Source: Phycisphaera sp. TMED9 (GTDB lineage: Bacteria; Planctomycetota; Phycisphaerae; Phycisphaerales; SM1A02). Taken from it: a stretch of 40,218 bases of DNA. Both the position numbers and the translations under genes were made by a program. Below are positions 6,271 to 15,121 of the stretch, piece after piece. Position 1 is the first letter of the stretch. The number at the start of each line of letters is the position of its first letter. The stretch spans positions 1-40,218 of the forward strand of contig NHBO02000091.1 of the NCBI GenBank assembly GCA_002167845.2, given 5' to 3'. A model generated the notes under the pieces. That model was not told the DNA's origin, ran no database searches, and saw only the letters and a list, made by a program, of their open reading frames with translations.

Positions 6271-6861
6271 TCAGATCGGCTTGAGAAGGACTTTGGCACC
6301 CAGATCTGCGATCTCGTCCACGTAGTTGGACGCGGGGCCGGGGATCCTGCCCAGGTGGATGTCTGACGGAGGTCCGAGCAGCAATCCGCGGAACGCGGAG
6401 AAGCTCGCTTCCGTGAGATTGATGGTGTATCCCTCGGGCGGCGTGATGTTCCTCAAACATGAGGCGCACAATTCGGAGTTGGCATTGAGGGCGGCGTTCT
6501 CGGTCGGGATCACGGGGGGGAACGTGAGCAGGACGAACGCGAAAGCGTTCGGCCGTTCGTCGTAGAAGCGGTAGCTCGCCGCCACCCAGGAATGGATGAA
6601 TTGAATCGGATCCGTCTCCCTCGCGGCGGATTCGCGGCGGGTCTCGGCCAACTCGAGCACGAGGCTCACGAAGACCTCCTCCTGCATCGCATTCTTGTTT
6701 TCGAAGTGGTGGTAGAGCACGGCTTCGTTGCAGCCGGCCTCGCGAGCGATCGCTCGAACGCTTGCGTTCTCCATGCCGTCAGTTCCCACAACCTTGATCA
6801 TGGCGTCCATCAGCCGTTGTTTCGTGCGGATGCGGGTGGGGGAATTGCTGGGTTGAGTCAT
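6271..6861 (-). CDS. TetR/AcrR family transcriptional regulator
   Basis: TetR N-terminal HTH: TKQRLMDAMIKVVGTDGMENASVRAIAREAGCNEAVLYHHFENKNAM. Confidence 0.92.
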   Translation of the reverse strand: MTQPSNSPTRIRTKQRLMDAMIKVVGTDGMENASVRAIAREAGCNEAVLYHHFENKNAMQEEVFVSLVLELAETRRESAARETDPIQFIHSWVAASYRFYDERPNAFAFVLLTFPPVIPTENAALNANSELCASCLRNITPPEGYTINLTEASFSAFRGLLLGPPSDIHLGRIPGPASNYVDEIADLGAKVLLKPI

Positions 6862-7051
6862 CGGAGGTCATTCTCGGGGAGGAAGAGGTTTCAGGGGCTG
6901 GTCGGTCGCGGGGGACGGGTCCGGGGGCGATCCCTCTTATTCGCTTCGCGATCCGGATGGTTTCAGGGTCAAAAATCGTCCAGAAAACACGCTTTTTTGG
7001 CGTCTGCGGGGAGATAAGTCTCTGAATCAGGCGGTTTTTGGCGGATTCAAC

Positions 7052-7079
7052 TTTACAGAGGCATGACGGGGAATATTAT
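7052..7079 (+). promoter_or_regulatory. Putative sigma70-like promoter (TTTACA-N16-TATTAT)
   Basis: TTTACA at 7052-7057 and TATTAT at 7074-7079 in the intergenic gap; faces an intrinsic terminator ~100 nt downstream. Confidence 0.5.
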
Positions 7080-7085
7080 TCTTCG

Positions 7086-7216
7086 GTCAGGGTTAGGTTT
7101 GACCCCCTGATGCCCCAACTTTTCGACTCTTTCGTCCGGGGTCTTAGTCGGCGTTTCGACTCTTGCTGAGGCCCCTTTCAGAACTCTCTCGGAAGTCCGA
7201 GAGAGTTCTATTTTTT
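7086..7216 (+). ncRNA. Candidate small RNA or structured leader (unclassified)
   Basis: Promoter-like element upstream; hairpin TCAGGG/CCCTGA (7087-7092/7105-7110); 10-bp stem with two GU wobbles GGGGUCUUAG/CUGAGGCCCC (7138-7147/7166-7175); 14-bp perfect terminator stem plus T-run; no credible CDS on this strand in the interval. Confidence 0.45.
7180..7216 (+). terminator. Intrinsic terminator
   Basis: AGAACTCTCTCGGA (7180-7193) AG TCCGAGAGAGTTCT (7196-7209) followed by ATTTTTT. Confidence 0.85.
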
Positions 7217-7304
7217 GTCGGCGAGTCGACTTCCTGGTCGTGGCCAACTTGAAAATGGGCGTCGTTCTCCACGAGTGATGCCGACATTCGCCGATGGAAT
7301 GCGA

Positions 7305-8462
7305 ATGAAGCAGGTCGATGTGATCGTTCTCGGGCTCGGCGGGATGGGCGCGTCCGCGATGGCGTCGCTTGCGGGCCGCGGGGTCGAGGTCCTTGGAATC
7401 GACCAGGAGCCGGGACCGCACGCCCGGGGGAGTTCTCACGGAGGAAGCCGGATCATCCGGCGGGCGTACTTCGAGCACCCCGATTACGTCCCGCTTCTCA
7501 ACGAGTCGTTCGAGGGGTGGGAACGGTTGGAACAATCGTCGGGTTCGTCGCTTCTTCATCGAACCGGAGTGCTTCTGGTCGGTCCGTCCAGTTCGTCGAT
7601 CCTTGGGGCATCGCGAGTCAGCGCTGAAGATCACGGGGTTCCGGTCGAGTGGCTCGATCCGAATCGCATGCGGGATCGATTCCCCCAGTTTTCGCCGGCT
7701 TCGGAATGGTCCGGCCTGTTCGAGCCCGGTGGTGGGATCCTCAATCCGGAGGCCGGCGTCCGGGCGCATCTCGATGTCGCTCAACGCGCGGGGGCGTCGA
7801 TCCGAAGACCGGAGAAGGTGCTCTCGATCGACGGGGACGACGATTTCGCCGTGGTGAGGACGGGCCGGGAGGAGATTCGGACGCGGCGGCTCATCATTGC
7901 CGCCGGGGCATGGACCGCTCCGCTGCTCGGTGATCATTTCGGGGTGCCGCTGATCCCGCATCGGAAGGCGATGGTCTGGTTCGAGGCGGCTGATTCCGCA
8001 GCCTGCTCATCCAGCCGAATGCCGGCGTGGCTCATCGACGATGGCGACCCCGCGGGCAACTATTACGGGGTTCCGACCTGGCCGGGGCAGCCGCCCCCGG
8101 GCGGCGTGAAAGTCGGTTTTCACGGCTTCGGGACCGTGGTGGACCCCGATGATCCGGGTGAGATCCCGGCCGACGTGGTGGAGCGATTCGCGGCGGATCT
8201 CGCGACCCGGATGCCGGGCGTTCTGGGTCGGCCGGTCGCGGCCCGTTCGTGTCTCTACACCATGAGCCCGGACCAGAATTTCGTGATCGATCATCTGCCG
8301 GGACGTCGTTCGATGGTCGTCGTGGCCGGGTTCAGCGGTCATGGGTACAAATTCGCGCCGGTCGTCGGGGAGATCGCCGCCGATCTGGCGATCGACGGAA
8401 ACACCCTCCGCCCGGCCGGGTTTCTCGGTCTTGCCAGATTTGGAACCGGAGCGGAGTCCTGA
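7305..8462 (+). CDS. FAD-dependent oxidoreductase, monomeric sarcosine oxidase / N-methyl-L-tryptophan oxidase family
   Basis: MKQVDVIVLGLGGMGASAMASLAGRGVEVLGIDQ Rossmann motif, then GPHARGSSHGGSRIIRRAYFEHPDYVPL, characteristic of the SoxA/SolA family. Track ORF starts at TTG 7215; ATG 7278 is an alternative start. Confidence 0.88.
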   Translation: MKQVDVIVLGLGGMGASAMASLAGRGVEVLGIDQEPGPHARGSSHGGSRIIRRAYFEHPDYVPLLNESFEGWERLEQSSGSSLLHRTGVLLVGPSSSSILGASRVSAEDHGVPVEWLDPNRMRDRFPQFSPASEWSGLFEPGGGILNPEAGVRAHLDVAQRAGASIRRPEKVLSIDGDDDFAVVRTGREEIRTRRLIIAAGAWTAPLLGDHFGVPLIPHRKAMVWFEAADSAACSSSRMPAWLIDDGDPAGNYYGVPTWPGQPPPGGVKVGFHGFGTVVDPDDPGEIPADVVERFAADLATRMPGVLGRPVAARSCLYTMSPDQNFVIDHLPGRRSMVVVAGFSGHGYKFAPVVGEIAADLAIDGNTLRPAGFLGLARFGTGAES

Positions 8463-8535: not shown

Positions 8536-9414
8536 ATGAATCTGATTCACCGTCTTGTCGGTCGTCGAGTACTTCAGTCGTTCTGGTCTCGATTGATCCT
8601 GTTTCCATTCCTTGCGACTCCGGCCTTCGCGCAGCTGGACATGGACTTTTCGCCTCGAACCTTTCAGGGAACTCCGTTGGTGGCGAGTGTTCAGGCGGAC
8701 TCGACCCAGCCGGGCGGGCCGATGATCTTTCGAAACTATCGGTTCGATTCCGAGGGGCGACTCCTTCAGATCGAACAAGGATCAGAGACGCTCGGAGTCA
8801 CCTTGGAGGTCGGTTTCGAATCCGATGCCGAGGGCAGACCCGTCAAGGTGTCCGCGGTCTTCATGGGAAATCTCGGTTGGATCGAAACCTACGCCTACGA
8901 CGACGCCGGGCGAATCGAGTCCTGGACGAAACTGAATCCTCGGACTCAGGTCGAAACCGTCTCCCGGAGGCATGTCTACGACGAGGAAGGTCGTCAGGTC
9001 AAGACGGTCTTCGTTCAAGCGGGTCGAACCCCCGAAGAGACGACTCGGACCTTTGATGCGTCGAATCGCGTGCTTCAGGAAGAAACCACTTCGGATGGAA
9101 AGATGACCCGTCGCATCGACTTCGAATACGACGCTTCGGGGTGCCTGGTGAAGCAGGTGACGCTTCTCGGTCGGGGCCCGGTCGAGGTTCGAGAGTGGGA
9201 ACACGGCAAAGACTGCCGACCCGACCGGCTGAAGATCAGAACCTTCGCGGGAAAGATCACCACGGTCACGATGACCTATGACGGCAAGGGGAATCTTCTC
9301 ACCGAGTCGACGCTCCGGGAGGGCAAGCCCGCCCCGACGGTGCAGCGATGGACATATGAGTTTCCCAAGCCCGCTTCCGATTCCGCCGTCAAAGAGGACG
9401 GGAAGACCGAGTGA
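8536..9414 (+). CDS. Secreted protein with RHS/YD-like repeats
   Basis: Signal-like N-terminus ending ATPAFAQ; repeated YDDAGRIESW, VYDEEGRQVK, FDASNRVLQEE, FEYDASGCLVKQ, TYDGKGNLLTES. Confidence 0.65.
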   Translation: MNLIHRLVGRRVLQSFWSRLILFPFLATPAFAQLDMDFSPRTFQGTPLVASVQADSTQPGGPMIFRNYRFDSEGRLLQIEQGSETLGVTLEVGFESDAEGRPVKVSAVFMGNLGWIETYAYDDAGRIESWTKLNPRTQVETVSRRHVYDEEGRQVKTVFVQAGRTPEETTRTFDASNRVLQEETTSDGKMTRRIDFEYDASGCLVKQVTLLGRGPVEVREWEHGKDCRPDRLKIRTFAGKITTVTMTYDGKGNLLTESTLREGKPAPTVQRWTYEFPKPASDSAVKEDGKTE

Positions 9415-15061: not shown

Positions 15062-15121
15062 GATCAAGAAGAATCAGGGGACCGTCTTTGGACGGTCCCC
15101 TGTTCTATTTCATTCTTGATC
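15062..15121. terminator. Two-tier hairpin between convergent genes, likely bidirectional terminator
   Basis: Inner perfect 12-bp stem CAGGGGACCGTC (15075-15086) TTTG GACGGTCCCCTG (15091-15102); outer perfect 9-bp stem GATCAAGAA (15062-15070)/TTCTTGATC (15113-15121). Confidence 0.7.

What the first reader, a model, noticed from the sequence alone, without database searches (positions are those of the whole stretch)
7023..7216. Candidate unannotated sRNA or attenuated leader between tetR and the sarcosine-oxidase-like gene
Seen directly: TTTACA-N16-TATTAT (7052-7079), then ~130 nt with a TCAGGG/CCCTGA helix, a 10-bp helix 7138-7147/7166-7175, and a 14-bp perfect terminator stem with ATTTTTT (7180-7216). 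No credible CDS on the + strand precedes this terminator back to the divergent tetR start, so it must end something unannotated. I see no obvious upstream segment complementary to the terminator 5' arm, which slightly favours a discrete sRNA over a riboswitch or attenuator, but the oxidase gene starts only ~60-90 nt downstream, so regulated read-through remains possible. I cannot match it to a known RNA family.
Basis: partly seen in the sequence, partly recalled or inferred. Interest (0 to 1): 0.72.

Follow-up and report, generated by a model that had tools for sequence, protein, structure and literature searches.

The report
Conserved small RNA in marine Phycisphaerae
Between a regulator gene and an oxidase gene of a marine planctomycete lies a real, previously uncatalogued small RNA of about 130 bases, with an unusually strictly conserved core found only in two related genera; what it regulates is not yet shown.

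Summary
The locus encodes a conserved structured RNA. Its core (window 7125-7178) occurs once in each of 10 related genomes, in two genera of one family of class Phycisphaerae, at 72-80 bits. It is absent elsewhere in that family, in 397 genomes of the class, and in Rfam. The first 17 nt (GACTCTTTCGTCCGGGG) are identical in all ten, although four-fold sites of the neighbouring gene are saturated (30-37% identity) towards the distant members. The helix and its apical stem covary (6 pairs changed on both sides, none broken). A second hairpin with unrelated sequence but intact pairing follows in 9 of 10. No antiterminator and no shared open frame were found.

Best reading: a discrete, intrinsically terminated sRNA (about 7086-7216), probably acting in trans through the invariant GAC-UCUUUC-GUC element. 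These genomes show CsrA but no Hfq. A serious rival is a 5' leader of the oxidase gene: the order tetR-RNA-oxidase is kept, and in one genome the RNA abuts the oxidase start. A TGGCGG-N4-TGGCGG box at the RNA promoter (5 of 10) also precedes an ECF sigma factor gene (7 of 7), hinting at shared control. The target is unknown.

The parts
7029..7044 (+). AGGCGG-TTTT-TGGCGG direct repeat (10-bp period) just upstream of the -35; putative regulator site
   Evidence: Within one mismatch of TGGCGG-N4/5-TGGCGG at the RNA promoter in 5 of 10 genomes (chance 0.0025-0.0045 each) and before an ECF sigma gene in 7 of 7 orthologues examined
7052..7079 (+). Promoter TTTACA-N16-TATTAT, predicted start of transcription about 7086
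   Evidence: equivalent hexamers with N16 in G004 (TTTACA/TAAACT), G005 (TTTGAG/TATTAT) and G049 (TTGATT/TATCTT)
7087..7110 (+). 5' hairpin TCAGGG/CCCTGA inside the variable 5' segment; not conserved
   Evidence: Folds; sequence and length of this segment differ in all relatives
7125..7137 (+). Invariant GACUCUUUCGUCC; predicted 3-bp mini-hairpin GAC-UCUUUC-GUC with a pyrimidine loop; likely interaction site
   Evidence: Identical in 10 of 10 genomes; loop unpaired in most predicted ensembles
7138..7175 (+). Hairpin 1: 11-bp stem 7138-7148/7165-7175 capped by a short apical stem (UUCG-like loop)
   Evidence: 160 of 160 cells paired, 6 pairs with changes on both sides, 0 of 500 shuffles as high
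7180..7216 (+). Hairpin 2 and U-run: intrinsic terminator, 13-bp stem
   Evidence: same place with different stem sequence but intact pairing in 8 of the 9 relatives, lost in G048
6271..6861 (-). Divergent TetR-family regulator (neighbour)
   Evidence: PF00440, 6.3e-11; best NCBIfam similarity to BetI, far below cut-off
7305..8462 (+). FAD-dependent N-methyltryptophan/sarcosine-oxidase-like gene (neighbour, possible cis target)
   Evidence: PF01266 6.2e-55; NF008425 N-methyl-L-tryptophan oxidase 374 bits, over its cut-off of 257

Best explanation
The element is a small RNA gene. RNA polymerase starts near 7086 from the promoter at 7052-7079 and stops at the intrinsic terminator at 7210-7216, making an RNA of about 130 nt. 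The RNA has a variable 5' segment, a strictly conserved pyrimidine-rich element (GACUCUUUCGUCC, probably a tiny stem with an exposed UCUUUC loop), a conserved hairpin and a terminator hairpin. Shown by computation: conservation, covariation, confinement to two genera, a promoter and a terminator of its own in the window. Inferred: that it is transcribed, and that it acts in trans by pairing its exposed CUCUUUC segment with purine-rich mRNA sites (or by binding a protein), without Hfq. Also inferred: that its promoter shares a regulator with an ECF sigma factor gene, so that it may belong to that stress or signal regulon. The oxidase gene would then have its own, nearly leaderless promoter.
For: Single copy in 10 genomes at 72-80 bits, next best 21-25 bits. 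17 invariant leading nt against 30-37% four-fold identity in the oxidase towards the distant members. Covariation in stem and apical stem with slide controls. Terminator hairpins of unrelated sequence at the same place in 9 of 10. No pairing of the terminator arms with upstream sequence that is kept across genomes, so the terminator looks unconditional. No shared start or frame, and third codon positions are invariant, so not a leader peptide. A -10-like hexamer with 4-5 of 6 matches 12-13 nt before the oxidase ATG in 3 of 9 genomes (chance 0.03 each) suggests a separate oxidase promoter.
Against: No expression data. The RNA always lies directly upstream of the oxidase gene, and the two co-occur. 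In G048 the second hairpin is missing and the oxidase ATG lies about 25 nt after hairpin 1. No conserved extended target of the seed was found. The promoter match is poor in several relatives.
Confidence: 0.6

Rival explanations
1. A 5' leader of the oxidase gene: the conserved core senses a small molecule or a protein and sets how much transcription passes the terminator into the oxidase gene (riboswitch-like or protein-dependent attenuation).
For: tetR-RNA-oxidase order kept in every genome where both sides are assembled, over 48-93% oxidase identity, while outer genes change. RNA and this oxidase orthologue co-occur; more distant oxidases lack the RNA. In G048 the core runs straight into the oxidase ribosome-binding site.
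Against: No antiterminator pairing in any consistent form. Conserved residues form one contiguous 17-nt block plus a plain hairpin rather than a junction or pseudoknot pocket. 60-130 nt of mostly unconserved sequence and a possible separate promoter lie between terminator and oxidase in 9 of 10.
Confidence: 0.3
2. The conserved 13-17 bp is a DNA operator of the divergent TetR regulator and the hairpins are only the terminator of a short aborted transcript.
For: A TetR operator is expected in this intergenic region; AGACTC...GGGTCT is a weak imperfect palindrome (by eye).
Against: The block is not a clear palindrome and lies about 39 nt downstream of the predicted start, next to a covarying RNA hairpin; it is always followed by that hairpin.
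Confidence: 0.07
3. Not a functional RNA: a chance promoter and terminator between genes.
For: A single window has many chance promoter- and terminator-like sites.
Against: Conservation, covariation and terminator replacement in nine other genomes.
Confidence: 0.02

Closest known systems
Intrinsically terminated intergenic trans-acting sRNAs with C/U-rich seeds (e.g. staphylococcal RsaE type; from memory)
   Same: Own promoter, about 130 nt, invariant exposed pyrimidine-rich stretch, terminator hairpin, single copy
   Different: No Rfam match; no Hfq found in these genomes; no target known; always beside the same gene
Transcription-attenuating leaders and riboswitches
   Same: Structured RNA with a terminator upstream of a metabolic gene, strict synteny
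   Different: No alternative antiterminator helix; conserved residues are one contiguous block; terminator 60-130 nt away from the gene in 9 of 10
ECF-sigma-controlled sRNAs (RybB, MicA of the sigma-E regulon; from memory)
   Same: The RNA promoter shares a sequence box with an ECF sigma factor gene
   Different: The box may be a regulator site rather than the sigma's own promoter; spacing to the -10 is 29 nt at the RNA and mostly 21 nt at the ECF gene

Membership tests
Any Rfam 15 family | Score above a family's gathering cut-off | tested here: not met
   Only a tRNA elsewhere in the window; best match over 7040-7320 is 16.2 bits, E 0.75
Discrete intergenic sRNA | Promoter and intrinsic terminator of its own, no coding frame | tested here: met
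   (by sequence; transcription itself not shown)
Discrete intergenic sRNA | Observed transcript ending at the terminator | not testable with these tools
   No RNA-seq available
Discrete intergenic sRNA | Conserved trans target pairing | tested here: inconclusive
   No shared gene among 13-mer seed complements with at most 1 mismatch that points to a target at mRNA starts; no consistent pairing with tetR or oxidase mRNA starts; short seeds not tested
Transcription attenuator / riboswitch | Mutually exclusive antiterminator and terminator pairing | tested here: not met
   No consistent upstream or downstream partner for either terminator arm in 9 genomes
Transcription attenuator / riboswitch | Constant position upstream of one gene | tested here: met
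   10 of 10 before the oxidase gene
Hfq-dependent sRNA | Hfq encoded in the genome | tested here: not met
   PF17209 in 0 of 11 genomes, controls ring
CsrA-sequestering RNA (CsrB/RsmY type) | Repeated GGA motifs in loops | tested here: not met
   CsrA is encoded in 11 of 11 genomes, but the conserved core has no GGA (read from the alignment)
Leader peptide attenuator | Conserved short open frame with start codon | tested here: not met
   No shared in-frame start; frame ends differ

The most novel reading that the evidence does not exclude
The founding case of a new RNA class in planctomycetes: either a new ligand- or protein-sensing leader for methylated-amino-acid oxidation, or an Hfq-independent sRNA of an ECF sigma regulon that acts through an invariant GAC-UCUUUC-GUC mini-hairpin.
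Probability: 0.3. Interest if true: 0.65.

Novelty: new member of a known kind. Interest (0 to 1): 0.45.

Why it matters
My literature searches turned up no small-RNA study of Planctomycetota. A covariation-supported RNA with a strictly invariant element, in genomes without detectable Hfq and with a possible tie to an ECF sigma factor, gives a concrete handle on RNA-based regulation in this phylum. It is lineage-restricted and its function is unproven, so the interest is moderate.

Tried and rejected
Rfam at gathering and lax thresholds: nothing. Class-wide model scan: only weak chance-level matches. Exact-pattern scan of 84,980 species: the nine relatives plus two matches (Bacillota, Smithella) that lack the helix; viral collection: one match without the RNA. 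Antiterminator search: none consistent; in the four genomes G000, G004, G005 and G006 the seed can pair with the terminator 3' arm (p 0.04-0.14), but not elsewhere. Seed complements of 13 nt in 10 genomes: no conserved target at gene starts. Pairing with tetR or oxidase mRNA starts: not consistent. Leader peptide: rejected. Hfq partner: absent. CsrA sponge: no GGA in the core. G007 (same genus, no RNA found): its contig ends 169 nt upstream of the oxidase match, before the expected RNA position, so its absence is not informative. The TGGCGG box as a large regulon: not seen.

Full report
What is there. The window belongs to a 3.3-Mb, 94-contig assembly. The promoter match alone is not above chance for 20 kb, so the single sequence could not settle the case.

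Conservation. blastn of 7023-7260 against the genus and family found the segment 7125-7214, or part of it, in genomes G001-G006 (same genus) and G047-G049 (another genus of the same family). A covariance model of the 55-nt core (R1) finds exactly one strong copy per genome, 72-80 bits, in these 10 of 181 family genomes, with nothing else above 22 bits. Among 397 genomes of the class no further copy exceeds 25 bits. An exact-pattern scan of 84,980 species returned the nine relatives plus two matches without the helix. That they are marine is my reading of some isolate names, not a tested point.

Constraint. The block GACTCTTTCGTCCGGGG is identical in all ten. The same genomes show only 30-37% identity at four-fold sites of the neighbouring oxidase between the window and the distant members (the G048 value rests on only 10 sites), which is saturation. 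One caution: the first set was found by sequence similarity, but the model scan of the family and class added no diverged members. The hairpin is supported by covariation: 160 of 160 pair cells are standard, six pairs have changes on both sides (including both apical pairs), no shuffle equals this, and slid controls collapse. RNAalifold independently predicts the same fold, including the invariant 3-bp GAC/GUC mini-hairpin with loop UCUUUC; since it never varies, that mini-hairpin is not tested by covariation.

Terminator. In nine of ten genomes a second strong hairpin follows, with unrelated stem sequences (ACTCTCTCGG, CCTCTCGGTTC, CGACCCCGCC, CCGGCTCCGCC) but near-complete pairing. U-runs are good in the window, G002, G004 and G006, and weaker in G003 and G047. 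In G048 the second hairpin is missing and hairpin 1 itself is followed by TTTTTCGTTTT, so it could serve as the terminator there.

Not coding. No reading frame through the block has a shared start or end, and third codon positions are invariant.

Cis or trans. The order tetR - RNA - oxidase is kept where assembled (tetR is off the contig in G003), while outer genes differ, for example in G048. More distant oxidases have other neighbours and no RNA. This favours a leader or at least a functional link. Against a switch: neither terminator arm has a conserved alternative partner, the constraint is one contiguous block, and 60-130 nt separate terminator and gene in nine genomes. In three of nine genomes a -10-like hexamer (4-5 of 6 matches) lies 12-13 nt before the oxidase ATG (chance 0.03 per position), as for a leaderless mRNA. 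I put about 0.6 on a discrete trans-acting sRNA and 0.3 on a leader.

Partners and targets. Hfq was not found in any of 11 genomes while control genomes rang; CsrA is present in all, but the core carries no GGA. Complements of the 13-nt seed with at most one mismatch show no conserved site at gene starts, and pairing with tetR or oxidase mRNA starts is not consistent.

Control of the RNA. A direct repeat close to TGGCGG-N4/5-TGGCGG lies just upstream of the RNA promoter in five genomes (window, G004, G005, G006, G049; at most one mismatch; chance 0.0025-0.0045 each). The same box precedes an ECF sigma factor gene (TIGR02999) in seven of seven orthologues examined, followed in most by a TATTAT-like -10. 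The window genome has both. Spacing to the -10 differs (29 nt at the RNA, mostly 21 nt at the sigma gene), so the box is more likely a regulator site than the sigma's own -35. Five genomes lack the box at the RNA, so this link is a lead, not a result.

Verdict. A real, new, lineage-restricted RNA family of a known general kind; function open.

Noticed in passing
L174, L148, L170, L162, L177, L179, L152 (upstream of ECF sigma gene); window 7029-7044: TGGCGG-N4-TGGCGG direct repeat followed mostly 21 nt later by a TATTAT-like hexamer is conserved upstream of a TIGR02999 ECF sigma factor gene in 7 genomes and recurs at the RNA promoter: a possible planctomycete regulator site.
   Followed up: partly
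7265-7305 and the equivalents in G001-G004: A TTCTGCC-like segment lies 40 nt before the oxidase ATG in G000-G003 (TTATCC in G004), and CATAAT lies 12 nt before it in G005 and G006: possible leaderless promoter of the oxidase.
   Followed up: partly
15075-15102: A 12-bp inverted repeat CAGGGGACCGTC/GACGGTCCCCTG that scores as a terminator on both strands, one of the strongest in the first 20 kb.
   Followed up: no
8536-9414: RHS/YD-repeat protein gene downstream of the oxidase gene, kept in synteny in most relatives.
   Followed up: no
L130 and L064 (G007, end of contig C114): Short tandem repeats (CATGTCATCG-like) sit near the contig end just upstream of the oxidase gene in G007 and probably broke the assembly where the RNA is expected.
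   Followed up: partly
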